A DNA stretch of 64,000 nt. It comes from Burkholderia lata (GTDB lineage Bacteria; Pseudomonadota; Gammaproteobacteria; Burkholderiales; Burkholderiaceae). The position numbers and the translations under genes are program-made. The stretch lies in the NCBI RefSeq assembly GCF_000012945.1, contig NC_007511.1, positions 2,914,001 through 2,978,000 of the forward strand, in the 5' to 3' direction. This document shows, in pieces, positions 43,945 through 58,625 of the stretch. The first letter of the stretch is position 1. The number at the start of each line of letters is the position of its first letter. The notes beneath the pieces were generated by a model. It searched no databases, was not told where the DNA came from, and saw only the letters and a program-made list of their open reading frames with translations.

Positions 43945-44006
43945 CGATGAGTCATCCTGTTTGATCGGTTGAACGCACGTGCGTGCGCGACGCACGGGTT
44001 ACCTAT

Positions 44007-44022
44007 TGCAATTCGGATGCCA
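44007..44022 (-). promoter_or_regulatory. Sigma-54 promoter of the TonB-dependent receptor
   Basis: Read leftward: TGGCATCCGAATTGCA, with GG (-24) and GC (-12) ten bases apart, close to the consensus TGGCACGNNNNTTGCW. It lies 63 bp before the receptor start codon. Confidence 0.7.
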
Positions 44023-44073
44023 GCATCGAGAAGCCCGTCGCACGGGGCTTCCGGCATGTGTGTGGCGCAGGTG

Positions 44074-44091
44074 GTGTTGCATGCGCATCTG
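44074..44091. promoter_or_regulatory. Degenerate enhancer site for the sigma-54 activator (candidate)
   Basis: GTGTTGC-ATGC-GCATCTG keeps the 7-4-7 layout of the perfect sites at 51018 and 57133, with three mismatches. It is about 75 bp upstream of the -12 element of the receptor promoter. A lone GCAACAC half site lies at 44112-44118. Confidence 0.35.
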
Positions 44092-44135
44092 TGACGGGAA
44101 GCAAACTGCTTGTCACGCAACACTCGATGAGGTCG

Positions 44136-45353
44136 TCAGGATAGCTTTGCAGTCACGGGCTGCGATGCGTCGCGCCGCCCCGTTGCGACGCGTAACGCGA
44201 ACGCGACCAGCACGACGACGGGCAGCCAGCACAGAAACACGCCCGGCAACCCGACGACCGGTACGAGCGCGCTGCCGGCCAGCGGGCCGCAGAACGCGCC
44301 CGTCATCGACGCGAGGTTGTAGAGGCTCGACACCTGGCTCTTGTCGGCCGGGTGACGACCGAGACGCTGCATGTTGGCGAGATGCAGCAGCGACGAACCG
44401 GCGCACAGCGCGGCAAGTCCCGCGCCGACGAGCCATACGTCATGCGCAAGACCCAGCGCGAGCAACCCGGTCACGCCGCCGGCAAGACTGAGCGCCTGGC
44501 AACGGCGCGCCGTCATCCGCTGCGCGACATGCCCGAGCCCGAACAGCGCGATCACCGCGACGACGCCTTGCAGCGTCAGCAGCGCGACGGCCTTCGTCTG
44601 CGACAACCCGAGCGACTGGATCGCCAGCACCACCGTATAGGCAGCGGCGAGCGAACGCGTCGCGCTGTTCACGGCTTCCAGCACGAGCTGTTCGCGCACG
44701 TCGTGACTCCATGCGAGCGCCAGCAACGCGCGCAGGCCGCCGGTTTCGGGTTGCGCACTGCGCGGCGCACGCTCCGCGTCGCCGAGCAGCGTCCGGCTGA
44801 ACAGCGCCATGCCCGCGAAGCTTGCCGATGCCGCGCAGAACGTCGCGACCGCGCCATGCGCGCCGATCAGCCAGCTCGCGAGCCACGGCCCGACCATGCC
44901 GGACCCGACCGACATCGCCGCGCGGTACCAGCCGGCGCGCGCGAGGCCGATCTGCGCGAGACGCGCGAGGAACACGCCGTTGATCGACACGATCCGGAAC
45001 GGAATGCACAGCCCGATCAACACTTGCGTGAGCGCGATCGGCGGCCATGCGCCGGTAAACGGCACGACGAGATTGAGCAGCATCGGGCCCATGCTCGCGA
45101 CGAAGTACACGCGCCGCGCGCCGTAGCGCGCGACGAGCAACCCGGCCGGCAGCGTCATCAACGCGATGCCGAGCGGCTCCATCGCCGCGATGATGCCGAG
45201 CCGGGCGCTGTCGACGCCGAGCGCGAGCGCGTACAGCGTCGTCGCGAGTTGCGCCATGCTGATCGTCGTCCCGCTCGCGAGCGCCAGTAGCATGAAGCCG
45301 CCGGTGAAGCGCTCGCGCCGCCAGGCGTCGGCGACGCGTGCCGGCGCGCTCAC
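44136..45353 (-). CDS. MFS transporter of the organosulfur operon
   Basis: 405 aa from GTG 45353, overlapping the stop of the upstream DszB-like gene (GTGA). Eleven to twelve membrane helices; LLVARYGARRVYFVASMGPM is an MFS loop-2/3 motif variant. It may import the substrate or export the desulfurised product. Coupled translation with a DszB-like protein favours a role in the same pathway. Confidence 0.82.
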   Translation of the reverse strand: MSAPARVADAWRRERFTGGFMLLALASGTTISMAQLATTLYALALGVDSARLGIIAAMEPLGIALMTLPAGLLVARYGARRVYFVASMGPMLLNLVVPFTGAWPPIALTQVLIGLCIPFRIVSINGVFLARLAQIGLARAGWYRAAMSVGSGMVGPWLASWLIGAHGAVATFCAASASFAGMALFSRTLLGDAERAPRSAQPETGGLRALLALAWSHDVREQLVLEAVNSATRSLAAAYTVVLAIQSLGLSQTKAVALLTLQGVVAVIALFGLGHVAQRMTARRCQALSLAGGVTGLLALGLAHDVWLVGAGLAALCAGSSLLHLANMQRLGRHPADKSQVSSLYNLASMTGAFCGPLAGSALVPVVGLPGVFLCWLPVVVLVAFALRVATGRRDASQPVTAKLS

Positions 45354-46426
45354 CGCGCGGCGTCGCGAGACAGCGTCGCGATGCCGTCGAGTGCGCGCCG
45401 GTCGATCCACCCGCGCACGTCGAAGTCGGCCGGCAAGAATCGCCAGTCGACGAGGAAGCGCTTGAAATCGTCGAGCGCGGCGATCGACGCTTCGTCGAGG
45501 TCCGTGCGCAGCCGCCGGTGCACGTCCGCGCCGTACGCGAGCCGCAGCCAGTCATGGCCCGATCCCGTCTCGCGGCCGAGATAGCCGAGCACTTCCTGCT
45601 CGTGCTCGCGCGCCCAGCCTTCGACATCGGTCACGCGCGCGAGGAAGCGGCAGACGATGTCGGGATGCCGTTCGAGCGTCGACGCATTGACGGTCAGCGG
45701 CCGCGGCGACCCGTTGTTGATGCGGATCTGCGGATCGGGATGAAAGCCGATGTCGATCACCGGCTGCGCGCCGATCAGGTGCGCGGTTTCGAGCCCGAGC
45801 GATCCCTTCACGTAGATCGCGTCGACCTCGCCCCGCACGAGCGCGGCCGCTTCGGCCGCATAGAGCCGGCGGCTCGACAGGCTCGCGGGATGGCTGAATG
45901 CCGCGTCGCGCGTCGCTGGCGTCGACACCGGTGCGCGCAGGTTCGACGCGGGCACGTCGATCCATTCGACGTCGGCGGGACCGAGCCCGTCGAGCGACAG
46001 CGCGCTGACGAAGCCACGCAGCGCCGCCGCGCGGAAGATGTCGATGCGCTCGGCGTCGCGGCGCGGCAGGCCGACGCGGCGCCCGCGCAGGTCCTTCGGC
46101 CGCGTCAGGCCACTTTCCGGCAGCGCGACGATCGCCTGCGCCTCGTCAACCCAGGTCAGTGCGACCACGCGCGTATCGGCGCCGGCCGCGCGCGCCCACA
46201 GCGCGGGAATGCTGCCGCCCTGCCGGAATGCGTTGTCGAGCGAATGATCGACATGTGCGTGATGCAGCGTCGCGTGCTGGCTCTCCTGCAGCGCGCGCAC
46301 GGTGATGCCGTCGCCGGCGAATTCGCTGTCGAGCCAGCCGAGATGCGCGGCGATGCCGAGCGGTGTCGGCACCGGGCAGCGGGTGTACCAGATCGACTGG
46401 ACGTTAGGGGAAGCCGTGATGCTCAT
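45350..46426 (-). CDS. DszB-like desulfinase / binding-protein-fold protein 1
   Basis: 358 aa from ATG 46426, no signal peptide, so cytoplasmic despite its periplasmic-binding-protein fold. The pattern WYTRCPVPTPLG (Cys17) corresponds to DszB's catalytic Cys27 region, and His58 and Arg68 with RQGG to DszB His60, Arg70 and Gly73. DszB hydrolyses an aryl sulfinate to sulfite. Thus a C-S-bond hydrolase on a sulfinate is likely; automatic annotation would say ABC substrate-binding protein. Lies between exbD (34 bp) and the MFS gene. Confidence 0.75.
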   Translation of the reverse strand: MSITASPNVQSIWYTRCPVPTPLGIAAHLGWLDSEFAGDGITVRALQESQHATLHHAHVDHSLDNAFRQGGSIPALWARAAGADTRVVALTWVDEAQAIVALPESGLTRPKDLRGRRVGLPRRDAERIDIFRAAALRGFVSALSLDGLGPADVEWIDVPASNLRAPVSTPATRDAAFSHPASLSSRRLYAAEAAALVRGEVDAIYVKGSLGLETAHLIGAQPVIDIGFHPDPQIRINNGSPRPLTVNASTLERHPDIVCRFLARVTDVEGWAREHEQEVLGYLGRETGSGHDWLRLAYGADVHRRLRTDLDEASIAALDDFKRFLVDWRFLPADFDVRGWIDRRALDGIATLSRDAAR

Positions 46427-46460
46427 GGATGCGTTCGGAAAAAGAGTCGTCAGCCGCGCA

Positions 46461-46871
46461 TCAGCCGCGCGGCGCGGTGAGCACCGACAGCCGCGTGATG
46501 CCCGCATGCTCGATCGCGGCCATCAGCTTCGCGACCGTGCCGTACGGCACGTGCTCGTCGGCCTGCAGGTCGAGCGCGACGTCGGGCCGGCCGGCCTTCA
46601 GCGCGGCCAGCTCGGCCGGCACCGCGGCGAGTGCGACCACGCGCTTGTCGAGATACACGACGCCCTTGTCGTCGACGCTCACGGTGACGTTCGGCTTGCG
46701 ATCGGCCGGCGCCGTGGCGACCGTGTTCGGCAGATTCACGTGCACCGCGTTGTTGAGCAGCGGCGCCGTGACGATGAAGGCGACGAGCAACACGAGCATC
46801 ACGTCGACGAGCGGCGTGATGTTGATTTCGCTGAGCACGTCGTCGTTGTCGGAGGAAGAAGAGAAAGCCAT
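46461..46871 (-). CDS. exbD: ExbD, TonB-system proton channel subunit
   Basis: 136 aa. Cytoplasmic N-terminus, a single membrane helix (INITPLVDVMLVLLVAFIVTAPL) with the essential Asp in PLVDVM, and a periplasmic domain. Its ATG overlaps the exbB stop codon (TAATG). It works with ExbB and TonB at the inner membrane. Confidence 0.92.
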   Translation of the reverse strand: MAFSSSSDNDDVLSEINITPLVDVMLVLLVAFIVTAPLLNNAVHVNLPNTVATAPADRKPNVTVSVDDKGVVYLDKRVVALAAVPAELAALKAGRPDVALDLQADEHVPYGTVAKLMAAIEHAGITRLSVLTAPRG

Positions 46872-47587
46872 TATGCGAACGCCTCCTGACGGGTGTCGCC
46901 GGCACGGCGCGCCGGCGCGGGCGCGACGGCCGCGGCCGGCACGCGGAAGCCGGCCCTCTGCGCGAGCGTGACGAAATCGGTGGCGAACGCATCGAGATCG
47001 GCCGACGCGGCCTTCACGCGGCGCACGAAGAAGTTGTACGCGAGCACGGCCGGCACCGCGACCGCGATGCCGATCCCGGTCGCGACGAGCGCCTCGCCGA
47101 TTGGCCCGGCCACGACGTCGATGCTCGCCGACGCGCTGTGCGTGATCGCGGTCAACGCGTGGATGATGCCGAACACGGTGCCGAACAGGCCGACGAACGG
47201 CGCGGTGCTGCCGATCGACGCGAGCACCGCCAGCCCCGCCTCTTCGCGCCGGCGCGCGTTGTGGATCTGCTGCCGCAGATGCCGTTCGAGCAGGTCGTGG
47301 CGGCTCCAGCTGTGTTCGAGATCGTGCGCGTTGCTCTCGTCGGCGCGTCGCAGCGCGTCGAAGCCCGTCGCGGCGAGTTCGCCCACCGGGCTGTTCGCGC
47401 CGTCGAGCGCGGCGGCCTCGTGAAAGCTGTTCGCGGCCCAGAACGCGCTGACGTAACGCCGGTTGCGCACGCTCGCCCGCAGGCTCTGGATCGCCTTCAC
47501 GACGATCAGCGTCCACGTGACGACGGAAAAGACGACGAGCAGCCAGAGCGCGCCCTGGACGATGAAGGTGGTCGGGATACCGTTCAT
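46871..47587 (-). CDS. exbB: ExbB, TonB-system channel subunit
   Basis: 238 aa with three membrane helices. The MotA/TolQ/ExbB signature GSTAPFVGLFGTVFGIIHAL and IGEALVATGIGIAVAVPAVLAYNFF are intact. 41 bp after tonB. With ExbD it transmits proton-motive force to TonB. Confidence 0.93.
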   Translation of the reverse strand: MNGIPTTFIVQGALWLLVVFSVVTWTLIVVKAIQSLRASVRNRRYVSAFWAANSFHEAAALDGANSPVGELAATGFDALRRADESNAHDLEHSWSRHDLLERHLRQQIHNARRREEAGLAVLASIGSTAPFVGLFGTVFGIIHALTAITHSASASIDVVAGPIGEALVATGIGIAVAVPAVLAYNFFVRRVKAASADLDAFATDFVTLAQRAGFRVPAAAVAPAPARRAGDTRQEAFA

Positions 47588-47628
47588 GATGTGAGTTCCT
47601 TGAAAAATGTGGCGGGCCGCCCGGCGGG

Positions 47629-48450
47629 TCAGCCCAGCTTGAAATCGATCGGCACGTTGACCCAGCCGTCGACCGCTTCGTCGCCGCGCTTCGCGGGCAC
47701 GAACGTCCAGCGCTTCACCGCGGCCACCGCCGCGGTGTCGAGCATGCGGCGGCCGCTGCTCGTGCGGACCTCGACGGAATCGGGCGAGCCGTTCGCGAGC
47801 ACGTGCACGCGCAGCACGACGCGCCCTTCCCAGCCCTGGTCCTGCGCGAACGCCGGATAGTCGGGCGCCGGGTTGCGCAGGTAGGCCGCGTCGCCGATCG
47901 GTGCGGTTTCACGCACGGGTGCGGCAGGCGCGGGAGCCGGTGCGGCTTGCGCAGCGACGGCCGGTACCGCCGTCGCGGTGACCGCCTCGCGGGTGACTTG
48001 CGGCGCGGCAGCGGGCGCAGGCGCCGGATGCACGATGGCCGCACGCGGCGTCGGCGTCGGCGTCGGCGCCTGCTTCAGCGGCTTCGGCGGCACCACCGGT
48101 GGCGGTGGATGCGCGGCCTGCGGCAACGGTTCGGGCGGCCGCGTCAGCTCGACCGTCATCGGCAGCGGCCGCGGCGGCTGCACGGGCGGCGCGGCCGGCG
48201 CGCGCGCGGCCAGCAGCGCGACACCCGCATGCAGTGCCGCGACTGCAAGCGCGATCGCACCCGTGACGCGCCACGCGCCCGGCTTCGCCGCTCGCGGATC
48301 CGGCCGTGCCGAAGGCGAAGGCGAAGCGGACGGCGGACGCGCCACTGCCACCGCCCTGCCCGCCACCCCGCTCGCACCTGCGCGCGGCGCAGCACGCGCC
48401 GCATGCCGGCGTGCCGGCGGCACGCCGTATTCGATCGTCAGACCTGTCAT
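47629..48450 (-). CDS. tonB: TonB energy-transducing protein
   Basis: 273 aa. A long basic cytoplasmic N-terminus (about 60 residues) precedes the membrane helix (VTGAIALAVAALHAGVALLAA), then a Pro-rich spacer (about 90-190) and a TonB C-terminal domain (PDYPAFAQDQGWEGRVVLRVHV...VKRWTFVPAKRG). It spans the periplasm to the receptor plug. Placed within the monooxygenase/DszB operon, it probably serves the receptor at 41623-43944. Confidence 0.92.
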   Translation of the reverse strand: MTGLTIEYGVPPARRHAARAAPRAGASGVAGRAVAVARPPSASPSPSARPDPRAAKPGAWRVTGAIALAVAALHAGVALLAARAPAAPPVQPPRPLPMTVELTRPPEPLPQAAHPPPPVVPPKPLKQAPTPTPTPRAAIVHPAPAPAAAPQVTREAVTATAVPAVAAQAAPAPAPAAPVRETAPIGDAAYLRNPAPDYPAFAQDQGWEGRVVLRVHVLANGSPDSVEVRTSSGRRMLDTAAVAAVKRWTFVPAKRGDEAVDGWVNVPIDFKLG

Positions 48451-48483
48451 GCTCGACTCCTTGCAATGACGCGCCGCGGCGCG

Positions 48484-49530
48484 CTACGCGACCCACGCAT
48501 GGCGTTGCCGGTCGATGTGCGTGAACGGCGCCGGGTCGATCCACGCGCGCGCATCGAAATCCTGTTCGAGAAAGCCCCATTCGACGAGGAAGTCCTTGAA
48601 CGCGACCAGCCCGTCGATCGACGTTTGCGCGAGCCCCGTCTCCAGATGGCGATGCACGTCCGCGCCGTACGCATAGCGCACCCACTCGTCGGATGCGCGC
48701 GTCTCGCGGCCGATATAGGCGACCGTCTCCGCCGGATGGCGCGCGGCCCAATCGCCCGCCCCCACCACGACCGACAGGAAGCGGCTCACGAGATCGGGGC
48801 GCGCGTCGATCAGCGCGCGGTCGACGGTCAGCGTGCGCGGCGTGCCGTTGCCGATCCGCACCAGCGGATCGGGGTGCGCACCGAGATCGATGACGACCTG
48901 CGCGTCGATCAGATGCACGGTTTCGAGCCCCTCGACGCCTTTCACGAACACCGCATCGACCTCGCCGCGCACGAGCGCCGCGATCTCGAGCCCGTACTCG
49001 TGCGGGCCGCGCGTGAACGAAGCGGGCCCCGTGCGACGTTCGCGTTCGTCGGGCAGGTCGACCCATTCGGCGTCGCCGTGCCCGAGCCCTTCCAGTTCGA
49101 GCGCGCTCAGGAAGCCTTTCAGCGCGGCCGCCCGCCAGAAGTCGATGCTGATCGGATGGCGCGGCAACCCGAGCCGCCGGCCGCGCAGATCGCGCACCGA
49201 GCGGATGCCGCGCTCGGGCAACGTGACGATCGCCTGGAATTCGTTGGTCCACGACAGGCCGATCACGCGCGTATCGGCGCCGCGTGCTCGCGCCCACAGC
49301 GCGGGAATGTTGCCGCCCTGCCGGAACGAGTGCGGCAGGCTGTGATCGAAATGCGATTCGCGCTTGCCGGCATCGGCCGTCTCCTGCAGCGAATTCAGCG
49401 TGATGCCGTCCGGCCCGAACTCCTCATCGAACCAGCCGCGATGCACGGCGATGCCGAGCGCGGTCGGCACCGGGCAACGCGTGTACCAGAGTGCGTCGCA
49501 GGCCGTGGCCTGCGCAGCGAGTGTCGTCAT
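48484..49530 (-). CDS. DszB-like desulfinase / binding-protein-fold protein 2
   Basis: 348 aa from ATG 49530, no signal peptide. Cys19 in WYTRCPVP, His60 and Arg70-QG-Gly73 match the DszB residues Cys27, His60, Arg70 and Gly73 in layout. It follows the flavin monooxygenase gene by 50 bp, mirroring the DszA-DszB order of dibenzothiophene desulfurisation. I infer that the monooxygenase yields a sulfinate and this protein releases sulfite from it. Direct sequence relatives 1 and 3 lie in the same window. Confidence 0.77.
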   Translation of the reverse strand: MTTLAAQATACDALWYTRCPVPTALGIAVHRGWFDEEFGPDGITLNSLQETADAGKRESHFDHSLPHSFRQGGNIPALWARARGADTRVIGLSWTNEFQAIVTLPERGIRSVRDLRGRRLGLPRHPISIDFWRAAALKGFLSALELEGLGHGDAEWVDLPDERERRTGPASFTRGPHEYGLEIAALVRGEVDAVFVKGVEGLETVHLIDAQVVIDLGAHPDPLVRIGNGTPRTLTVDRALIDARPDLVSRFLSVVVGAGDWAARHPAETVAYIGRETRASDEWVRYAYGADVHRHLETGLAQTSIDGLVAFKDFLVEWGFLEQDFDARAWIDPAPFTHIDRQRHAWVA

Positions 49531-49580
49531 GGTGAATGTCCTTGTCGATGGGGTTGGAAGGCGCGGGAATGCCGTTGCGG

Positions 49581-50753
49581 TCATGCGCCGGCCACACGCA
49601 GCGCCGCCTGCGTGGCGCGCGCGTTTCGCGCGCCGTCGACGAGCGGCAGCACTTCCTCGCCTACGCGGTACGCCTCCTCGAGATGCGGGTTGCTCGCCAG
49701 AATGAACGTCGAGACGCCGATGTCGACGTATTCCGCGAGCCGCTCGGCCACCTGCTCGTGGCTGCCGACGATCACGCAGCCGGGGCCGCCGCGAATCTGC
49801 GACATCCCGGCCCACAGGTTCGGGCCGACGATCAGGTCGTCGAAGTGCTGCGTGTTGCCCTGGTGCAGCGCGAACTGGCGTTTCGCGCCGACCGATTCCG
49901 ACGACTCGCCGCGCCCGCCGAAGCCGTTGCGCGTCGCGTCGCCCACGGTCGCGAACATCTGCCGCAACTCGGCCCACGCCTGCTCCTCGGTGTCGCGCGC
50001 GAGGATGTCGATGCGCATGCCGAAGCGCAGGTCGCGCTCGGCGTGCTGGCGATCGAGCGCGCGGCGTGCCGCATCGATCACCTCCTTCTGTTTCGCGAGC
50101 GGCTCGCCCCAGTTCAGGTGCACGTCGCCATGCTTCGCGGCGACCGCGAGCGCGGCGTCGCTCGCGCCGGCCAGGTAGATGCGCGGCGGCTTCTGGCCGC
50201 TCAGCGGCGGCAGCAGGCCACCGGCTTCGACGCGGTAGAAGCGGCCGTCGAACGTGAACGGCTCGCCGGCCGCGACGCCCTTCACGACATCGAGGAATTC
50301 GTCGGTCCGCGCATAGCGGCTGTCGTGATCGATGAAATCGCCGTATGCCCGCTGATCGGGGCCGCCGCCGCCGGTGACGACGTTCCACTCCACGCGGCCG
50401 CGGCTGATCCGCTGCAGGCTCGCGGCCATCTGCGCCGCATAGACCGGATGCACGAAATGCGGCTGCAACGCGATCAGGAGCCGCAGCCGGCGCGTCTCGC
50501 GCGCCAGCGCGGCCGCCACGACCCACGGCTCCTCGGTGAAGCGGAAGATCGGAATCAGCGCGCCGTGGAAGCCGGCGATATCGGCCGCGCGCGCGACCTG
50601 CGACAGATAGTCGATGTAGCCGAAATCGTCGTCGTCGACTTTCGGCGCGACGCGCGATGCGCGCTGGCGATTCCATTCGCCGCGCGTATGCAGGTCGTGT
50701 GCGCGCCGGCCGTCACCATGCATCGGCAGGCGCCACAGAAATTCAACAGCCAT
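49581..50753 (-). CDS. FMNH2-dependent monooxygenase, SsuD/DszA-type
   Basis: 390 aa, luciferase-like (LLM) fold. Motifs: QPHFVHPVYAAQMAASLQRIS, then WNVVTGGGGPDQRAYGDFIDHDSRYARTDEFL, characteristic of alkanesulfonate and sulfone monooxygenases. Such enzymes use reduced FMN and oxygen to cleave or oxidise C-S bonds. No flavin reductase gene is present here, so it must be supplied from elsewhere. ATG 50753 has AGGAG. First gene of the long leftward operon, 71 bp from a sigma-54 promoter. Confidence 0.88.
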   Translation of the reverse strand: MAVEFLWRLPMHGDGRRAHDLHTRGEWNRQRASRVAPKVDDDDFGYIDYLSQVARAADIAGFHGALIPIFRFTEEPWVVAAALARETRRLRLLIALQPHFVHPVYAAQMAASLQRISRGRVEWNVVTGGGGPDQRAYGDFIDHDSRYARTDEFLDVVKGVAAGEPFTFDGRFYRVEAGGLLPPLSGQKPPRIYLAGASDAALAVAAKHGDVHLNWGEPLAKQKEVIDAARRALDRQHAERDLRFGMRIDILARDTEEQAWAELRQMFATVGDATRNGFGGRGESSESVGAKRQFALHQGNTQHFDDLIVGPNLWAGMSQIRGGPGCVIVGSHEQVAERLAEYVDIGVSTFILASNPHLEEAYRVGEEVLPLVDGARNARATQAALRVAGA

Positions 50754-50823
50754 CGGAGTTCTCCTGGTCGGGCCATTCGGATTGCGTGCGGCATCGGCGT
50801 GCCGCGCGTGTGCTGCGCTGTAA

Positions 50824-50839
50824 AGCACGCGGTGTGCCA
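50824..50839 (-). promoter_or_regulatory. Sigma-54 promoter of the leftward monooxygenase operon
   Basis: Read leftward: TGGCACACCGCGTGCT, GG and GC ten bases apart, TGGCAC perfect. 71 bp before the start codon of the monooxygenase gene. Enhancer sites 50987-51035 lie about 160-200 bp upstream. Confidence 0.7.
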
Positions 50840-50986
50840 ACGTGCTCGCCACTGCGCGTGCCGGCCCGTCGATGAATGTGCACAACGCCTTGTCGGTCGG
50901 GCATCAGCGGGAATCGCTCAGCGCTCACCGGTTGTTCGCGGACACGGCAAAACACGCCCGCACCGCGCTGCTGCACCAACCCCACC

Positions 50987-51006
50987 GCTGCTGCGCGCGC
51001 AACAGC
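50987..51006. promoter_or_regulatory. Enhancer site (UAS1) for the sigma-54 activator
   Basis: Inverted repeat GCTGCTGC-GCGC-GCAACAGC, one mismatch between arms. Its centre is 30 bp (about three turns) from the perfect UAS2. Located between the divergent sigma-54 promoters at 50824 and 51110. Confidence 0.65.
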
Positions 51007-51017
51007 GGCCGACGCGA

Positions 51018-51035
51018 CTGTTGCTGGCGCAACAG
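51018..51035. promoter_or_regulatory. Enhancer site (UAS2), perfect inverted repeat
   Basis: CTGTTGC-TGGC-GCAACAG, a perfect 7-4-7 inverted repeat. Its centre lies about 97 bp upstream of the -12 element of the rightward promoter, the usual distance for a sigma-54 activator. The same sequence outside the spacer recurs at 57133-57150. Confidence 0.75.
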
Positions 51036-51109
51036 GCCATGCATCGGCACGCGCATCGCCCCTCCCGCGCGACGCCCGCGCCGCGTGCGGCCGCGCCGTT
51101 TCCGTTCAC

Positions 51110-51125
51110 TGGCCCGGAACTTGCA
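51110..51125 (+). promoter_or_regulatory. Sigma-54 promoter of the rightward transport operon
   Basis: TGGCCCGGAACTTGCA matches TGGCACGNNNNTTGCW at all but one fixed position. It is 84 bp before the DszB-like gene 3. Confidence 0.75.
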
Positions 51126-51208
51126 ACGTTGACCGGCCCGCGCGTGCGACACCGACACCGTGCGCGACCGGGTTTCATCCATGCTTACGCAGAGAGGGAA
51201 TCTCACCC

Positions 51209-52285
51209 ATGACAGACAGGCCCGATTCGTCATCGGACAAGCAGCAGACGTTCTGGTACGCCCGATCGCCCGTGCCGACCCCGCTCGGCATCGCCGTGCA
51301 TCTCGGCTGGCTCAACGGCGAGACGTCGGCCGACGGCGTCGCGATCCGCTCGCCGCGCGGCGCCACGCGGCACGACGTGTCGTCGATCAGCGATCACACG
51401 CTCGCGCAGTCGTTTCGCCAGGGCGGCAGCATCCCCGCGATGTGGGCGCGCTCGAACGGCGCGAACACGCGCGTGATCGGGCTGTCGTGGGTCGACGAAT
51501 CACAGTTGATCCTCGCGCGGCCCGAGTCGGGCATCCGCTCGGTGAAGGCATTGCGTGGGCGCCGCATCGCGATTCCGAGCCGCCCCGACGACCGCATCGA
51601 CATCTTTCGCGCGTCGGCGCTGCGCGGCTTCGTCAACGCGCTGAGCCTCGACGGGCTGACCACGCGCGACGTCGAACGCGTCGATGTGCACGCGCGCACG
51701 CTGCAGGCCGTCGGGCCGGCGCGCGCGGCGGACCTGTTCGTGTCGCCGCACGGCTTTTCGAGCCGCGCGCTGTACGCGGCCGAAGCCGGTGCGCTGCTGC
51801 GCGGCGAGGTCGACGCGATCTACGTGAAGGGTTCGACCGGCCTCGAGATCGCGCAGCTGATCGGCGCGCACGTCGTGATCGACATCGGCTTTCATCCGGA
51901 GCGCTCGATCCGCAACAACAACGGCACGCCGCGCCCGCTGACCGTCAACGCGGACGTGCTCGCGAACCATCCGGACATCGTCGCCGGCTTCCTGAAGCTC
52001 GTGGTCGCAGCCGGCGACTGGGCCGGCACGCATCCCGACGAAACCGCGCACTACGTGGCCGGCGAAACCGCATCGTCGATCGACTGGGTGCGCGCCGCGT
52101 ACGGCAACCAGCTGCACCGGCATCTCGGCGTCAACCTCGACGACGAATCGGTCGCCGCGCTCGACGACTTCAAGACCTTCCTGCACGACCACGGCTTTCT
52201 GGAAGCCGACTTCGACGTCGCCGACTGGATTGACCCGCGTCCGCTCGCCGACGTGCTGCGGCCGTCGCTGCAGAAGCGCGCGTGA
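51209..52285 (+). CDS. DszB-like protein 3, catalytic residues replaced
   Basis: 358 aa from ATG 51209, no signal peptide. Overall similarity to DszB-like proteins 1 and 2 is high (FWYARSPVPTPLGIAVHLGW, SFRQGGSIPAMWAR, EVDAIYVKGSTGLE), but Ser20 stands where the catalytic Cys is expected and Ile60 where the His is expected; Arg70 and Gly73 remain. In DszB, Cys-to-Ser abolishes activity. It may bind rather than cleave a sulfur compound, act on another substrate, or regulate. First gene of the rightward operon, 31 bp before the binding-protein gene. Confidence 0.75.
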   Translation: MTDRPDSSSDKQQTFWYARSPVPTPLGIAVHLGWLNGETSADGVAIRSPRGATRHDVSSISDHTLAQSFRQGGSIPAMWARSNGANTRVIGLSWVDESQLILARPESGIRSVKALRGRRIAIPSRPDDRIDIFRASALRGFVNALSLDGLTTRDVERVDVHARTLQAVGPARAADLFVSPHGFSSRALYAAEAGALLRGEVDAIYVKGSTGLEIAQLIGAHVVIDIGFHPERSIRNNNGTPRPLTVNADVLANHPDIVAGFLKLVVAAGDWAGTHPDETAHYVAGETASSIDWVRAAYGNQLHRHLGVNLDDESVAALDDFKTFLHDHGFLEADFDVADWIDPRPLADVLRPSLQKRA

Positions 52286-52316
52286 GCCCCTTTTCCGCCC
52301 ACTGTTCCGGACCACC

Positions 52317-53423
52317 ATGAAACACACGCTCTCCCTCACGTCGCTGCGCCGCCCGCTGCGCGCGCTGTTCGCCGCGCTGCCGTTCGCCGCGGCATCGCTC
52401 GCCGCACCGGCCGCGCAGGCGGACGACGCGCCCAAGGTCGTGCGGATCGCCGTCGTCGCCTATTCGAGCGGCGGCAAGACGCAATACGCGGGCGCGTCCG
52501 CGTTGATCGACGCCGACAAGTCGCTCGCGAACGCGCTCGCCGCGCGGCACGTGACGCTGCAATGGGTGCCCGTGTCGACCGCGGCGGTCGGCACGCTCGT
52601 GAACGAAGCGTTCACGAACGGCAGCATCGATTTCGCCGGCTACGGCGACCTGCCGTCGGTTGTCGTCAACGCGTCGGGCACGCACACGCGCCTGATCGTG
52701 CCGGGCGGCGTCGGCAGCAACACGTACCTCGTCGTGCCGGCCGCGTCGACCGCGAAGTCGATCGTCGACCTGAAAGGCAAGCGCATCGCGCTCAATCGCG
52801 GCCGGCCCTGGGAAGTCACGTTCAGCAAGCTGCTCGCCGAGAACGGGCTGAAGCTGTCCGACTTCAAGATCTACAACCTCGACCCGCAGGCCGGGGCGGC
52901 GGCCGTCGCGGCCGGCCGGGTCGACGGCTTCTTCACGCTGTCCGACGCGTATTCGCTCGTCGACAAGCGCGTCGGCAAGATCATCTGGTCGACCAAGACC
53001 GCGCCCGACGACTGGAAGATGCGCGCGGAACTGTGGGCGTCCGACGATTTCGTCCGGCGCTATCCCGACATCACGCAGCTCGTCGCGACCGCCTACGTGC
53101 GCGCGGCGCACTGGATCTCGCAGCCGCAGAACCGCGACGCGTACGTAAAGATCCTGAGCGCGTCCGGCCAGCCGGAAAGCATCGTGCGCCGCGAATACGC
53201 GGATGAGGCGACCCCGTGGAAGGAGCAATGGACGCCGCTCTTCACGCCCGCGCTGACCGGCCACTACCGCGACGTCATCGCGTACAGCCGCCAGGCCGGC
53301 CTGACGTCCACGCCGGTCGACGTGAATGCGCTGCTCGCGCCGACGTTCGTCGCAACCGCGCTCAAGCAGCTCGGGCTCGACGGCTACTGGCGCGCGGACG
53401 CCGCGCGCGTCGCGAGCCGCTGA
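52317..53423 (+). CDS. ABC transporter substrate-binding protein (sulfonate/NitT-TauT type)
   Basis: 368 aa from ATG 52317. Signal peptide (LFAALPFAAASLAAPAAQA), then RIAVVAYSSGGKTQYAG, FTNGSIDFAGYGDLPSVVVNASG and LKGKRIALNRGRPWEVTFSKLLAENGL, the SsuA/TauA-like pattern. Periplasmic receptor for the two permeases that follow. Its stop codon overlaps the next start (TGATG). Confidence 0.88.
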   Translation: MKHTLSLTSLRRPLRALFAALPFAAASLAAPAAQADDAPKVVRIAVVAYSSGGKTQYAGASALIDADKSLANALAARHVTLQWVPVSTAAVGTLVNEAFTNGSIDFAGYGDLPSVVVNASGTHTRLIVPGGVGSNTYLVVPAASTAKSIVDLKGKRIALNRGRPWEVTFSKLLAENGLKLSDFKIYNLDPQAGAAAVAAGRVDGFFTLSDAYSLVDKRVGKIIWSTKTAPDDWKMRAELWASDDFVRRYPDITQLVATAYVRAAHWISQPQNRDAYVKILSASGQPESIVRREYADEATPWKEQWTPLFTPALTGHYRDVIAYSRQAGLTSTPVDVNALLAPTFVATALKQLGLDGYWRADAARVASR

Positions 53424-54238
53424 TGCCGATGCATGCCCTCGCGTCGAACGGCACACGCGCGCTCCGCCTGCCCGGCATGGCACGGCTCGGCGGGCTCGCG
53501 CTGTGGTGGGCCACGCCCGTCGCGTTCGTCGCGCTGTGGTGGCTCGCGAGCGCGCAGCGCTGGTTCCCGCCTCAGCTCCTCGTGCCGCCCGACCGGCTCG
53601 CGGCAACGCTGCGCACGCTGCTCGACACCGGCGAACTGCGCGACAACCTGCTGATCACGCTGCATCGCCTCGCGCTCGGCTTCGCGATCGGCGCGACCGG
53701 CGGTGCCGCATTCGGCATCCTGCTTGCGCGCAGCCGGCTGTTCGCCGACTACCTGCGGCCGACGTTCGACCTGCTGCGGCAAGTGCCGACGCTCACGCTG
53801 ATTCCGCTGCTGATCCTGCTGATCGGCGTCGACGAACCGCTGAAGCTCGTCGTCGTCGGCAAGGCCGTGTTCTTTCCGGTCGCGCTGGCCGCGTACACGG
53901 GCGTGCACGACGCGCCGCGCGATCTCGTCGAGATGGCGCGGCACTACGGGCTCGGCCGCTTCGCGCTGCTGCGCGACGTGCTGCTGCCCGCCGCGTTGCC
54001 ACCGCTGCTGACCGGCGTGCGGATCGCGCTCGCGCGCGCGTGGCTTGCGCTCGTCGCGGTCGAGCTGCTCAGCGCCGACAGCGGGATCGGCCAGATGATG
54101 GAACTGGCGCGGCAGATGCTGCGCCTCGACGTCGTGCTCATCGACGTCGCGGTGATCGGGCTGATCGGCTTCGCGATCGACCGGTCGATCGCGCTCGTGC
54201 AACGTTACGCATTGCGCTGGCAGACACCCACTCGCTGA
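53423..54238 (+). CDS. ABC transporter permease 1 (SsuC/TauC type)
   Basis: 271 aa, six membrane helices. The EAA loop that docks the ATPase is EMARHYGLGRFALLRDVLLPAALPPLL. Start overlaps the binding-protein stop. Forms the membrane channel together with permease 2. Confidence 0.88.
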   Translation: MPMHALASNGTRALRLPGMARLGGLALWWATPVAFVALWWLASAQRWFPPQLLVPPDRLAATLRTLLDTGELRDNLLITLHRLALGFAIGATGGAAFGILLARSRLFADYLRPTFDLLRQVPTLTLIPLLILLIGVDEPLKLVVVGKAVFFPVALAAYTGVHDAPRDLVEMARHYGLGRFALLRDVLLPAALPPLLTGVRIALARAWLALVAVELLSADSGIGQMMELARQMLRLDVVLIDVAVIGLIGFAIDRSIALVQRYALRWQTPTR

Positions 54239-54254
54239 ACGAACAGGTTTCCGA

Positions 54255-55033
54255 ATGACCCTCGCCCTACCCGCCTTCCCGTTCGCCGCGCTGCGCCGTC
54301 GTGCGCGCGGCCTCGTCGTGCCGGCTCTGCTGGTCGCCGCATGGCAATACGCGTCGTCCGGCGATGCGGCCCATCAATATGCGTTCGTGCCGTTGCAGCA
54401 GGTGTGCGCCGCGCTCGTCGAACTCGCACGCAGCGGCGAACTCGCGACCGATCTCGGCGCGAGCCTGCGCCGCACGACCCTCGGCCTGGCGGCCGGCGTC
54501 GCGTTCGGGCTCGTGTTCGGTGCGGCGATGGCGCGCTCGACGCTCGCGCGCAAGCTCGGCGAACCGGCGTTCCAGGCGCTACGCTACGTGCCGCTGCTCG
54601 GGCTGATTCCGCTGCTGAGCCTGTGGGCCGGCACCGGCGAATTCGCGAAGGTGTTCATCATCGCGCTCGCCGCGTTCTACCCGATGACCACCGCCAGCTT
54701 CGACGGGCTGCGCCGCGTCGACCCGCGCTATGTCGAACTCGCGCAGTCGTATCGCCTGACACGCATCGGCCTGTGGCGCGACGTGTTGATTCCGGGCGCG
54801 CTGCCCGACCTGTTCGCGGGCGTGTTGCAGGCCGTGCCGTTTGCGTGGATCACCGCGACCAGTAGCGAGCTGCTGTTCAACGCGGGTGCGGGGGTCGGCA
54901 GCCTGATGCAGAACGCGCAGGCCGGCGCGCGTGCCGACGTGTTGCTGGTCTGCGTGCTGGGGGTGACGGCGCTCGCCGTCGGCATGAGTGCGCTATGCGA
55001 GCGAATCGCGCAGCGCGCGCTGCGCTGGCGCGA

Positions 55034-55043
<10 letters not shown>
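54255..55043 (+). CDS. ABC transporter permease 2 (SsuC/TauC type)
   Basis: 262 aa, six membrane helices, EAA loop ELAQSYRLTRIGLWRDVLIPGALPDLF. Different in sequence from permease 1, so the channel is a heterodimer. No ATP-binding protein gene follows: the next gene is the convergent activator, overlapping its stop by 10 bp. The ATPase must come from another locus. Confidence 0.88.
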
Positions 55044-56152
<1,109 letters not shown>

Positions 56153-56272
56153 GGCACGACCGGCGTGTTGAACGGGGAAGGTTCGACGATAGCAAGGTGC
56201 GCGCCGGCCACGAACCAATTCATCGAGCTATCGGTATGACGGCGGCCGGATTGCGCCGGCCGCCGCGCGGCG

Positions 56273-56953
56273 TCACGCGAGGCCGGTCATCTTCCATTGC
56301 TGCTCGAGCGCACCCGGCCCGAATTCGAGCGAGCCGCCGAGCGGTTCCGCAAGCGCCTGGAAATACGCAGCCTCCTCGAGGATCAGGATGTACTTCGAAA
56401 CATCGAGGATCGATTTGCCCCAGAACGTCGCGCCGCCATTTGCCTCGATGATCGCCGGCACCTCCGGGTCGCGGCGGATCGTGTCGACGATGAAGCGCGG
56501 CTCGCCGGGACGACGATCGACGTACACCGGAATCTCGCGGGCGCGTGTGTAGCGCGCGGCCGGCGCATAGCGGATCGGCAGCGGGCGATGCGCGCTCGCC
56601 CAGGCGCCGAGGTACGGGCCGTGCACGTGGATCACGACGCCGACTTCCGGCGCCTCGCGGAACACGTCCGCATAGCGCGGCCCGTTGCCGCCCGCGCGCG
56701 CGTCGCCGTGCAGCACGTCGCCGTCGAACGTCACGACGACGGGCTGAATCTCCTGCGACGCGGCCCACGGGCTCGGCGCCGACAGCGCGACGATGAGTTC
56801 GGTGCCCGGCACACGCTGGAACGCCTGGAACGTGTTGGTCGCGGACAGCGTGCGCGTGTCCTTCAGCACGCGCTCGGCCTGCGTGAATTCGCGCGTGGCG
56901 CGCTCGACGAATGCCACGAGTTCGCCGCTGTCGAGGGTTGAGGTGACGGACAT
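56273..56953 (-). CDS. Class II aldolase/adducin-family protein
   Basis: 226 aa from ATG 56953 with AAGGAAA upstream. The core has the metal-binding VVIHVHGPYLGAW (HVH) and a later NGGATFWGKSILD, as in the aldolase/adducin fold. Sugar-phosphate aldolases and methylthioribulose-phosphate enzymes belong here, so a link to sulfur salvage is possible but unproved. A good sigma-54 promoter lies 80 bp upstream, and the activator gene follows 120 bp downstream on the same strand. Confidence 0.75.
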   Translation of the reverse strand: MSVTSTLDSGELVAFVERATREFTQAERVLKDTRTLSATNTFQAFQRVPGTELIVALSAPSPWAASQEIQPVVVTFDGDVLHGDARAGGNGPRYADVFREAPEVGVVIHVHGPYLGAWASAHRPLPIRYAPAARYTRAREIPVYVDRRPGEPRFIVDTIRRDPEVPAIIEANGGATFWGKSILDVSKYILILEEAAYFQALAEPLGGSLEFGPGALEQQWKMTGLA

Positions 56954-57032
56954 GAGGACGGTTTCCTTGATTGGGTGGACGGATGAGCTCGCATCGCGAT
57001 GTCGTGACACCGCGACGCACGGCCACCGGATC

Positions 57033-57048
57033 AGCAGCAATCGTGCCA
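57033..57048 (-). promoter_or_regulatory. Sigma-54 promoter of the aldolase-family gene
   Basis: Read leftward: TGGCACGATTGCTGCT, with TGGCACG perfect and GC at -12. 80 bp before the start codon. Read-through could raise expression of the activator gene downstream, giving positive feedback. Confidence 0.75.
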
Positions 57049-57132
57049 GCCGGGCATGCACGCGTCGAAGGCCCGCGCCACGGTGCGCGTGCGCCTGGCA
57101 CGACGCGCGCCGTGCGACTCACGCGAGCGCCT

Positions 57133-57150
57133 CTGTTGCGGGAGCAACAG
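57133..57150. promoter_or_regulatory. Enhancer site (UAS3) between divergent sigma-54 promoters
   Basis: CTGTTGC-GGGA-GCAACAG, identical in both arms to UAS2 at 51018-51035. About 100 bp from the leftward and 130 bp from the rightward promoter. Shared spacing and arms with UAS2 argue for one regulator. Confidence 0.75.
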
Positions 57151-57258
57151 CCTGCCGGCCCGGATTGCTGCGCGACGCGCAGCCGCCGACAGCGTGTGCG
57201 GCACACCGTACGACGCAGCGGCCCGTCGTACCTCGCGCCACGTGCCCAACGGCTGCGC

Positions 57259-57274
57259 TGGTTCGAAACTTGCG
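57259..57274 (+). promoter_or_regulatory. Sigma-54 promoter of the lipase gene
   Basis: TGGTTCGAAACTTGCG, GG and GC ten bases apart with CTTGC at -12. 68 bp before the ATG at 57342. Confidence 0.65.
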
Positions 57275-57341
57275 TCGTGGTCGGCCCGCGCCGCGCGCTG
57301 TCCGGCGCGTCCGATCCGACTTCACCGACACCCATCCGACC

Positions 57342-58625
57342 ATGACGCTCCTCCCCCTGCGCGGCAACACCGCGCGCACGCTGCTGGCTTCGGCGCTCGC
57401 CGTATCGTCTCTCCTCTCGCAGGCGGCTTCGCCCGGCCGCGTTCCCGTGCCCGATCCGTTGCAGGGCGACGGCCGCGTGTCCGCGTTCTACACGTGGGAC
57501 CGCGACATTCCGGCGACGCCCGGCGTGCTGCTGCGTTCCGAGCCGCTTCCAGCGACGCTCGGGCTCGCGAGCGCCGGCCGCCAGCTGCGCATCCTCTATG
57601 CATCGACCGACGGCGTCGGCGGCCGCACGCCGATCGCCGTGTCGGGTGCGCTGTTCGTGCCGCGCGGCACGCCGCCCGCGGGCGGCTGGCCGATCGTCGC
57701 GTGGGCGCACGGCACGTTCGGGATGGCCGACATCTGCGCGCCGTCGTGGTTCGGCCGCTCGTATCGCGACGTGCGCTACCTGAACACGTGGCTTCAGCAA
57801 GGGTTCGCGGTCGTCGCGACCGACTACCAGGGGCTCGGCACGCCCGGCCCGAATCCGCAGCTCAACAACCGCTCGAACAGCTATACGCTGCTCGACAGCG
57901 TGCGCGCAGTGCTCGGCGGCGTGCGGGGCCTCGCGAACGAGGTCGTGCTCGTCGGCCAGTCGCAAGGCGGCTCGGCCGTGTTCGCGGCGGCCGGCTACGC
58001 CCCCGCCTATGCGCCCGAACTCGCGATCCGCGCAACGGTTGCCACCGGCACGATCTACAACGCGTCGCCCGCCACGCTCGCGTCGCTGCCGAAGTTTGAA
58101 AGCGCGTACCGGCGCGATCCCGAACGCGTCGATCCGACACTCGCGTACCAGTTCTACTCGGTGCTCTCCGCGCAGCAGATCGACCCGTCGCTGCGCGCGG
58201 ACGAGGTGCTGACCGACCACGCATTGCCGATCCTCGAACAGTCGCGCATCAGTTGCCTCGCGTCGCTCGAAGACGACGCGGCGCTCGCGCACCTCACGCA
58301 TGCGAACACCGTGAAGCCCGGCGGCGATGCGCGGCTGAAGGCATGGTGGGATGAGTACCTGAAATACCCGACGCTGAAGATCGCCACGCCCGTCTTCATC
58401 GGTGCGGGCGCGGACGACGGGCTCGCACCGCTCGAACTCGCGCTCGCGAAGGATGCATGCGCGGCGGGCACGACCGTCGAGGCGCACCTGTATGCGGGCC
58501 GTGAACACAACGGCACCGTGAACGCGTCGCTCGCCGATTCGATTCCGTTCGTGAAGCGCGTGCTCGCCGGCGAAACGATCCGCCCGGTCTGCACGCCGGC
58601 CGCACAGCCGGCCGTGTCGCAATAG
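57342..58625 (+). CDS. Secreted lipase/esterase, alpha/beta hydrolase
   Basis: 427 aa from ATG 57342. Signal peptide (LLASALAVSSLLSQA). The nucleophile elbow GQSQGG places the catalytic serine at 207; a late REHNGTV gives the likely His and GAGADDGLAP the Asp. The layout is that of secretory lipases (LIP family). It is transcribed from a sigma-54 promoter with UAS3 upstream, so the organosulfur regulator probably controls it, possibly to release a sulfur-containing ester. Confidence 0.82.
   Translation: MTLLPLRGNTARTLLASALAVSSLLSQAASPGRVPVPDPLQGDGRVSAFYTWDRDIPATPGVLLRSEPLPATLGLASAGRQLRILYASTDGVGGRTPIAVSGALFVPRGTPPAGGWPIVAWAHGTFGMADICAPSWFGRSYRDVRYLNTWLQQGFAVVATDYQGLGTPGPNPQLNNRSNSYTLLDSVRAVLGGVRGLANEVVLVGQSQGGSAVFAAAGYAPAYAPELAIRATVATGTIYNASPATLASLPKFESAYRRDPERVDPTLAYQFYSVLSAQQIDPSLRADEVLTDHALPILEQSRISCLASLEDDAALAHLTHANTVKPGGDARLKAWWDEYLKYPTLKIATPVFIGAGADDGLAPLELALAKDACAAGTTVEAHLYAGREHNGTVNASLADSIPFVKRVLAGETIRPVCTPAAQPAVSQ

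What the first reader, a model, noticed from the sequence alone, without database searches (positions are those of the whole stretch)
43945..57341. A sigma-54 regulon for organosulfur use, with one enhancer motif between two divergent promoter pairs
Five -24/-12 promoters (44007, 50824, 51110, 57033, 57259) precede the TonB receptor, monooxygenase operon, transport operon, aldolase gene and lipase gene. CTGTTGC-N4-GCAACAG occurs perfectly at 51018 and 57133 and once with a single mismatch (50987), each time between divergent sigma-54 promoters. A receiver-less SfnR-like activator is encoded between the two sites. This ties transporter, enzymes, receptor and lipase into one circuit with a testable operator.
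Basis: partly seen in the sequence, partly recalled or inferred. Interest (0 to 1): 0.85.

Follow-up and report, generated by a model that had tools for sequence, protein, structure and literature searches.

The report
Sigma-54 sulfur-scavenging gene switch
A Burkholderia bacterium carries a cluster of sulfur-scavenging genes whose sigma-54 promoters share one conserved DNA switch site, the same kind of site that stands before known sulfone-use genes in Pseudomonas, and the cluster includes relatives of the fuel-desulfurizing enzyme DszB that are filed as transport proteins.

Summary
CTGTTGC-N4-GCAACAG occurs perfectly only twice in the 8.68-Mb genome, at 51018 and 57133, plus a one-mismatch copy at 50988. 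The three sites are present in all 18 orthologous loci compared (window included), the pair always 30 bp apart. The four sigma-54 boxes beside them are 13/15 to 15/15 invariant. Activator and monooxygenase genes co-occur. The motif is an SfnR-family operator: it precedes sigma-54 boxes of sfnG and msuE in Pseudomonas, and a CTGCTG-N6-CAGCAG form precedes this genome's canonical sfn cluster. The window's activator is an SfnR paralogue.

Corrections: the TonB receptor has a conserved sigma-54 box (13 of 14 loci) but only degenerate enhancer copies. Three "substrate-binding proteins" are DszB-type homologues: two keep Cys27/His60/Arg70; the first gene of the transport operon has Ser/Ile instead in 17 of 17 relatives. 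The monooxygenase operon also encodes TonB, ExbB and ExbD.

Binding and RpoN dependence are inferred. This is a new variant of the SfnR regulon.

The parts
50988..51005 (.). Enhancer site UAS1, CTGCTGCGCGCGCAACAG (1 mismatch)
   Evidence: at most 2 mismatches in 18 of 18 loci, window included; 13/18 columns invariant
51018..51035 (.). Enhancer site UAS2, perfect palindrome, 30 bp from UAS1
   Evidence: 15/18 columns invariant
57133..57150 (.). Enhancer site UAS3, perfect palindrome
   Evidence: 11/18 columns invariant
50968..50974 (.). Conserved half-site CTGCTGC, 20 bp from UAS1
   Evidence: alignment; 5/7 columns invariant, P 0.04; weak
50825..50839 (-). Sigma-54 box TGGCACACCGCGTGC of the monooxygenase operon
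   Evidence: 13/15 columns invariant in 18 sequences
51110..51124 (+). Sigma-54 box TGGCCCGGAACTTGC of the DszB-type/ABC operon
   Evidence: 13/15 invariant
57034..57048 (-). Sigma-54 box TGGCACGATTGCTGC of the aldolase gene (possibly reading into the activator gene)
   Evidence: 15/15 invariant
57259..57273 (+). Sigma-54 box TGGTTCGAAACTTGC of the lipase gene (2 mismatches to the consensus)
   Evidence: read; 13/15 invariant
44008..44022 (-). Sigma-54 box TGGCATCCGAATTGC of the TonB-dependent receptor
   Evidence: kept in 13 of 14 loci
44074..44123 (.). Two degenerate enhancer copies (44074-44091, 3 mismatches; 44106-44123, 2 mismatches to CTGYTG-N6-CARCAG), 32 bp apart
   Evidence: the stretch is largely kept in 13 of 14 loci; chance not excluded
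55034..56152 (-). Receiver-less SfnR-type sigma-54 activator, 372 aa
   Evidence: PF00158 E 3e-71; 54-55% to two P. aeruginosa SfnR-type proteins
56153..56272 (-). Spacer between aldolase and activator genes with a 30-bp block invariant in 18 of 18 sequences: candidate separate promoter or regulator site of the activator; also a hairpin next to the aldolase stop
   Evidence: no sigma-70 consensus match; hairpin -24.9 kcal/mol
49581..50753 (-). Flavin monooxygenase of the SsuD/MsuD kind
   Evidence: PF00296; best solved relative MsuD, E 7e-80; start checked
48484..49530 (-). DszB-type desulfinase homologue 1 (Cys/His/Arg kept)
   Evidence: only PDB matches at E <= 0.001 are DszB, best 1e-12
47629..48450 (-). 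TonB
   Evidence: PF03544
46871..47587 (-). ExbB
   Evidence: PF01618
46461..46880 (-). ExbD
   Evidence: PF02472
45350..46507 (-). DszB-type desulfinase homologue 2 (Cys/His/Arg kept); a likely start is at 46426
   Evidence: only PDB matches at E <= 0.001 are DszB, best 2e-17
44136..45410 (-). MFS transporter
   Evidence: PF07690
41623..43944 (-). TonB-dependent receptor
   Evidence: PF00593, PF07715; start checked
51209..52285 (+). DszB-type protein 3 with Ser/Ile at the Cys27/His60 positions
   Evidence: only PDB matches at E <= 0.001 are DszB, best 6e-11; Ser and Ile in 17 of 17 relatives
52317..53423 (+). ABC transporter substrate-binding protein with a signal-peptide-like start (by eye)
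   Evidence: SsuA family 100.6 bits, below the cut-off of 163.5 (scanned as 52230-53423); start
53216..54238 (+). ABC permease (true start probably near 53.4 kb)
   Evidence: PF00528
54255..55043 (+). ABC permease
   Evidence: PF00528
56273..56953 (-). Class II aldolase/adducin-domain protein
   Evidence: PF00596 (scanned as 56273-57061)
57342..58625 (+). Secretory-lipase-like hydrolase
   Evidence: PF03583

Best explanation
The locus is an SfnR-type sigma-54 regulon for using organosulfur compounds. The receiver-less activator (55034-56152) binds the palindrome CTGYTG-N6-CARCAG, present as a 30-bp tandem between the monooxygenase and transport operons and once between the aldolase and lipase genes. 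From each intergenic region it drives two divergent RpoN promoters by DNA looping. As it has no sensor domain, its activity is probably set by its amount: by a separate, strictly conserved region before its own gene, and perhaps by read-through from the aldolase promoter (positive feedback, weakened by a hairpin between the two genes). The units so switched on make an SsuD/MsuD-like flavin monooxygenase, two Cys-type DszB-like desulfinases that would release sulfite from a sulfinate, a Ser-type DszB paralogue, an ABC importer without an ATPase of its own in the window, TonB-ExbB-ExbD and an MFS protein; the TonB receptor is likely part of it. Shown here: the sites, boxes, conservation, co-occurrence and family relations. 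Inferred: binding, looping, RpoN dependence, starvation response, substrates.
For: Only two perfect motif copies in the genome, both here; all three sites in 18 of 18 loci at fixed pair spacing; the four boxes beside them far more conserved than the rest of the intergenic DNA; activator in 18 of 61 Burkholderia genomes and monooxygenase in the same 18 plus one 82%-complete genome with a fragment. Of 13 CTGYTG-N6-CARCAG sites in this genome 12 were checked; 4 have a sigma-54 box of at most 1 mismatch within 250 bp: the three here and one before the canonical msuE-sfnG unit. In a P. aeruginosa record a perfect copy plus a 2-mismatch copy 31 bp on precede the sigma-54 box of msuE. In 5 further Pseudomonas genomes 7 sites of CTGTTG-N6-CAACAG were found (2 control sites); 4 precede sigma-54 boxes of sfnG (2) or msuE (2). 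The stretch SRNIVRARL is identical in this activator and the P. aeruginosa SfnR2-like protein. DszB is the only PDB match of the three 'SBPs'.
Against: No binding or expression data. The activator lies outside the clade of SfnR1 and canonical Burkholderia SfnR. UAS3 is less well kept (11/18 columns). The TonB receptor lacks a good site. Three of the 7 Pseudomonas sites are not before sfnG or msuE, and 2 of those 5 genomes have no site. No ABC ATPase signature was found in the window, and no flavin reductase among the genes scanned. The reversed control of the relaxed motif is commoner in the genome than the motif (27 against 13), and the control sites were not checked for sigma-54 boxes. The DszB relation is remote.
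Confidence: 0.82

Rival explanations
1. The palindromes are used by the canonical SfnR (on contig C1, next to sfnG) rather than by the local activator, or by both: one shared operator for two paralogous activators.
For: Both are SfnR-type with near-identical helices (SRNVLRARL, SRNIVRARL); both clusters carry the same 6-N6-6 geometry. All 18 owners of the cluster also list a 56-62% paralogue.
Against: UAS2 and UAS3 carry CTGTTG..CAACAG while the canonical site is CTGCTG..CAGCAG. The strict co-occurrence is with the local activator: in the capped listing, 38 of 61 genomes show a 56-62% paralogue, and 19 of these have neither the local activator nor the monooxygenase. UAS1 is a hybrid, so discrimination is not proven.
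Confidence: 0.3
2. The TonB receptor is not part of this regulon: its sigma-54 box answers to another activator.
For: No copy of the relaxed motif with fewer than 2 mismatches upstream; the receptor is kept in G009, which lacks the TonB-ExbBD block and the box.
Against: A conserved stretch with a GCAACAC half-site and a second degenerate copy 32 bp away in 13 of 14 loci; the receptor gene follows the operon directly.
Confidence: 0.35
3. The palindrome is the site of an unrelated repressor or architectural protein that happens to lie between divergent genes.
For: Perfect palindromes between divergent genes are common for repressors (general knowledge). A LysR-type regulator gene lies near the receptor (40594-41553).
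Against: The same palindrome lies about 80 to 155 bp upstream of sigma-54 boxes of sfnG and msuE in Pseudomonas, in one record beside SfnR-type genes.
Confidence: 0.05

Closest known systems
SfnR / SfnR1 / SfnR2 regulons of Pseudomonas (dimethyl sulfone and methanesulfonate use)
   Same: Receiver-less sigma-54 activator, 54-55% identity; same palindrome and -24/-12 arrangement before msuE and sfnG; flavin monooxygenase target. That msu genes group with sfnR1/sfnR2 in P. aeruginosa is stated in PMC8234197 (passages read); the names SfnR1 and SfnR2 for the two proteins of L173 are my assignment by gene order.
   Different: The activator is a separate paralogue; the targets are DszB-type proteins, TonB-ExbBD, an ABC importer, an aldolase and a lipase, not sfnG or msuEDC.
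Canonical Burkholderia sfn cluster (L065: sfnB, sfnG, msuE, sfnC-like, sfnR)
   Same: Same operator geometry, perfect sigma-54 box, same activator family.
   Different: CTGCTG-N6-CAGCAG instead of CTGTTG-N6-CAACAG; different enzymes.
[quoted passage not shown]
   Same: Only solved relative of the three proteins at E <= 0.001; Cys27, His60, Arg70 and Gly73 (named as active-site residues in PMC12168087, passages read) kept in two of them.
   Different: Remote (best E 2e-17 to 6e-11); in proteobacteria, beside a sigma-54 operator, with a Ser-type third copy.
SsuD / MsuD alkanesulfonate monooxygenases
   Same: Fold family and best match (E 7e-80 to MsuD).
   Different: Below the curated cut-off (315 of 518 bits); RSCED and RLHVI of SsuD read RFTEE and RIDIL here; no partner reductase seen in the cluster.

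Membership tests
SfnR-type sigma-54 regulon | Activator of AAA+ plus Fis-type helix without receiver or sensor domain | tested here: met
   (AAA+ from residue 25, nothing upstream); helix by alignment only; Pfam gives no helix domain
SfnR-type sigma-54 regulon | Activator orthologous to SfnR/SfnR1 | tested here: not met
   Tree of 27 rows: canonical SfnR groups with the SfnR1-like protein (96/95), the window's activator outside, position unresolved. It is therefore called SfnR-like, not SfnR.
SfnR-type sigma-54 regulon | -24/-12 promoters with the family palindrome upstream | tested here: met
   for four promoters; the TonB receptor only degenerately
SfnR-type sigma-54 regulon | Expression needs RpoN and the activator and is induced by sulfate limitation (CysB above SfnR in P. 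putida: title of Kouzuma 2008 seen in reference lists only) | not testable with these tools
   -
DszB desulfinase family | Sequence relation to DszB rather than to periplasmic binding proteins | tested here: met
   DszB the only PDB match at E <= 0.001 for all three; no signal peptide apparent by eye; Pfam NMT1 and, below cut-off, the SsuA family also match
DszB desulfinase family (homologues 1 and 2) | Catalytic Cys27, His60, Arg70 | tested here: met
   Cys in 17/17 and 12/12 relatives, His in 17/17 and 11/12, Arg in all of these
DszB desulfinase family (homologue 3, 51209-52285) | Catalytic Cys27 and His60 | tested here: not met
   Ser and Ile in 17/17 relatives; not claimed to be a desulfinase
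SsuD/MsuD alkanesulfonate monooxygenase | Score above the curated equivalog cut-off | tested here: not met
   315 bits against 518

The most novel reading that the evidence does not exclude
A second, paralogous SfnR circuit has evolved in Burkholderia that couples uptake by a dedicated TonB-ExbBD system to a sulfinate-releasing pathway built from a flavin monooxygenase and paired DszB-type proteins: Cys-type copies that desulfinate, and a Ser-type copy that binds the sulfinate without cleaving it and serves as carrier or as the missing sensor of the receiver-less activator. In a 210-row alignment the Cys27 position is Cys (157) or Ser (50), uncovered in 3, and never another residue, so the Ser type looks like an old, maintained subfamily.
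Probability: 0.2. Interest if true: 0.78.

Novelty: new variant of a known kind. Interest (0 to 1): 0.55.

Why it matters
It gives the SfnR family a concrete operator, CTGYTG-N6-CARCAG, supported in both Pseudomonas and Burkholderia, with which sulfur regulons can be scanned. It shows that a set of proteins filed as sulfonate-binding proteins are relatives of the desulfinase DszB and sit in a sulfur-scavenging circuit together with a TonB uptake system, so organosulfur use in these bacteria may be broader than SsuD, TauD and SfnG suggest. The two paralogous activators with T- and C-type operators are a natural test of how enhancer specificity diverges.

Tried and rejected
A wider regulon in this genome: the relaxed motif has 13 sites; 8 of the 12 checked have no sigma-54 box of at most 1 mismatch (GG and GC exact) within 250 bp; the thirteenth overlaps a checked site by all but 3 bases. 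Lying in a long open frame does not discriminate, since the enhancer sites here also overlap long frames in this GC-rich DNA. The 1-mismatch sites at C1:846048 and C2:53849 lie inside frames that by eye encode ThrS-like and FliR-like proteins. A half-site-plus-promoter pattern gave 29 places against 87 in the control; of these I looked closely only at L212, besides the window's own. The conserved block before the activator was sought elsewhere as a possible CysB/SsuR site: six places within 3 mismatches, its own included; no sulfur gene recognised by eye beside the other five. SfnR-type loci L068, L069, L092 and L134 show no exact CTGYTG-N6-CARCAG; exact copies in the Variovorax and Paraburkholderia records L174 and L175 were not followed up. 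So the motif is not shown to be universal. A search of 249 genomes of the family found the Ser-type protein at E <= 1e-130 in 10, all of the genus, with at most 8 candidates scored per genome; Paraburkholderia orthologues appear only in the protein search. Structure prediction of the DszB-type protein never started. Literature: in the listings shown by searches (several of them capped) and the passages read I saw no account of this locus or of an SfnR regulon in Burkholderia. The library does not hold four primary SfnR papers that I asked for, so whether this operator was footprinted there is not known to me.


Full report
The window is G000:C3:2914001-2978000 of an unnamed 8.68-Mb, three-contig genome whose nearest named matches are Burkholderia. 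The cluster runs from about 41.6 to 58.6 kb. On the minus strand lie a flavin monooxygenase, a DszB-type protein, TonB, ExbB, ExbD, a second DszB-type protein, an MFS protein and then a TonB-dependent receptor. On the plus strand lie a third DszB-type protein, an ABC binding protein and two permeases. The activator and an aldolase-domain gene follow on the minus strand, and a lipase-like gene on the plus strand.

Observation. The palindrome is perfect at 51018 and 57133 and has one mismatch at 50988. The two are the only perfect copies in the genome. With 2 mismatches allowed there is no excess over the reversed control (77 against 100), and no wider claim should rest on loose matches. In 61 Burkholderia genomes I count 29 perfect sites against 3 control sites: 23 in this locus (22 seen, one in G031) and 6 elsewhere. 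Five of those six were viewed; none has a sigma-54 box of at most 1 mismatch within 250 bp. The sixth (G021:C3) was not fetched. Of three further sites in other genera one overlaps a one-mismatch box.

Orthologues. The activator is found at 94-100% identity in 18 of 61 genomes, this one included. The monooxygenase is found at E <= 1e-150 in the same 18 and in G031, an 82%-complete assembly in which it sits at the end of a 5.5-kb contig. I fetched the other 17 loci. All 18 carry the three sites with at most 2 mismatches, and the pair is 30 bp apart in every one. The four central bases vary while most of the arms are kept. Over 18 sequences the monooxygenase, transport, aldolase and lipase sigma-54 boxes are invariant in 13, 13, 15 and 13 of 15 columns, against 88 of 379 and 42 of 320 columns outside the named boxes (the hypergeometric values given there treat columns as independent and are only a guide). 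Gene content is uniform where the fetched stretch reaches, but for one locus; four loci (L054, L055, L059, L063) do not reach the left end. The exception, L064 (genome G009), lacks the TonB-ExbB-ExbD-DszB2-MFS block and the receptor's sigma-54 box. A named record, B. cenocepacia CMCC(B)23006, has all five boxes letter for letter and three sites with one mismatch each to CTGYTG-N6-CARCAG.

What the motif is. In a P. aeruginosa record (pHPA0170-2) the region before msuE carries CTGTTGCCCGGGCAACAG, a second copy with 2 mismatches 31 bp on, and the box TGGTACGGCCCTTGC. Two sigma-54 activator genes lie on either side of that operon; I take them for SfnR1 and SfnR2 by gene order, which PMC8234197 describes (passages read; PMC8274868 lists PA2354 as SfnR1, passage read). 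I then searched five further Pseudomonas genomes for CTGTTG-N6-CAACAG: 7 sites in 3 genomes, 2 control sites. Four of the 7 precede one-mismatch sigma-54 boxes of sfnG (P. fildesensis, P. morbosilactucae) or msuE (P. fildesensis, Pseudomonas sp. PDM18), at about 80 to 155 bp. One lies beside an SfnB-like gene without such a box, one has a box but no recognised sulfur gene, and one has neither. In the window's own genome the canonical sfn cluster (sfnB, sfnG and msuE above their curated cut-offs) has CTGCTG-N6-CAGCAG; 19 of 21 fetched 2.3-kb stretches of that region, this genome's included, hold at least one exact copy, mostly in the aligned place. Here it stands with a perfect box TGGCACGCTCCTTGC. 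So the operator of this family appears to be CTGYTG-N6-CARCAG, and its use here fits the family.

The activator. It has 54-55% identity to the two P. aeruginosa proteins and 59% to the canonical SfnR of its own genome. In a 27-row tree the canonical SfnR groups with the SfnR1-like protein (96/95) and the SfnR2-like protein joins them (86/94); the window's activator stands apart with unresolved position. I call it a paralogue. Its stretch SRNIVRARL equals that of the SfnR2-like protein. How it is controlled is open. Between the aldolase stop and its start lie a hairpin (-24.9 kcal/mol in the window) and a 30-bp block invariant in 18 of 18. No sigma-70 consensus was found there and the block does not recur near sulfur genes that I recognised. 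A separate promoter under another regulator, in the manner of CysB above SfnR (title of Kouzuma 2008, seen only in reference lists), is a reasonable inference.

The enzymes. Three proteins that databases call sulfonate-binding proteins match no solved structure except DszB at E <= 0.001. DszB uses Cys27, His60, Arg70 and Gly73 (PMC12168087, passages read), and the proton of Cys27 was proposed to act in the chemistry (PMC6100217, title and abstract start in the listing). Two of the three keep Cys, His and Arg. The third, first in the transport operon, has Ser and Ile at the Cys and His positions in 17 of 17 relatives. In 210 aligned rows (the 207 listed homologues of two searches plus the three) the Cys position is Cys in 157, Ser in 50, and uncovered in 3. 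The set is biased towards close relatives. The monooxygenase is nearest MsuD and SsuD but below the curated cut-off. A monooxygenase giving a sulfinate followed by a desulfinase giving sulfite is the obvious pathway, by analogy with DszA and DszB; the substrate is unknown. No ABC ATPase signature was found in the window, and no flavin reductase was seen among the genes scanned, so these may come from elsewhere; the sfn cluster with the same kind of operator does encode MsuE.

The TonB receptor. Its box is kept in 13 of 14 loci, but upstream copies of the motif have 3 and 2 mismatches. It is probably, not certainly, in the circuit.

Verdict. It is a new variant of the SfnR regulon: a paralogous activator with a different set of targets. 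The unexpected part is the DszB-type content.

Noticed in passing
51209-52285 and 210-row alignment: The nucleophile position of this DszB-like family is Cys or Ser only; Ser-type and Cys-type proteins are listed from contigs of equal length in Jeongeupia sp. HS-3 and Paraburkholderia pallida, so probably the same contigs.
   Followed up: partly
56153-56272: A 30-bp block before the activator is invariant in 18 of 18 sequences, more so than the enhancer sites; what reads it is unknown.
   Followed up: partly
57162-57181: An element GGATTGCTGCGC-N-CGCAG, partly conserved, resembles in reverse one near the start of the canonical sfnC-like gene.
   Followed up: no
L064 (G009): Absence of the TonB-ExbBD-DszB2-MFS block together with the receptor's sigma-54 box.
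   Followed up: partly
L212 (G000:C3:333057-333134): A strong sigma-54 box TGGCACGGGGGTTGC stands before a gene that by eye resembles a carboxylate transporter.
   Followed up: no
L173 (P. aeruginosa pHPA0170-2): A plasmid record carries the msu operon with both SfnR-type genes beside type VI secretion genes, perhaps chromosomal DNA in a plasmid record.
   Followed up: no
rhizobial megaplasmids (H64-H80): DszB-like proteins of about 46-48% identity, two places in each of these listed records, occur on Sinorhizobium, Ensifer and Rhizobium plasmids.
   Followed up: no
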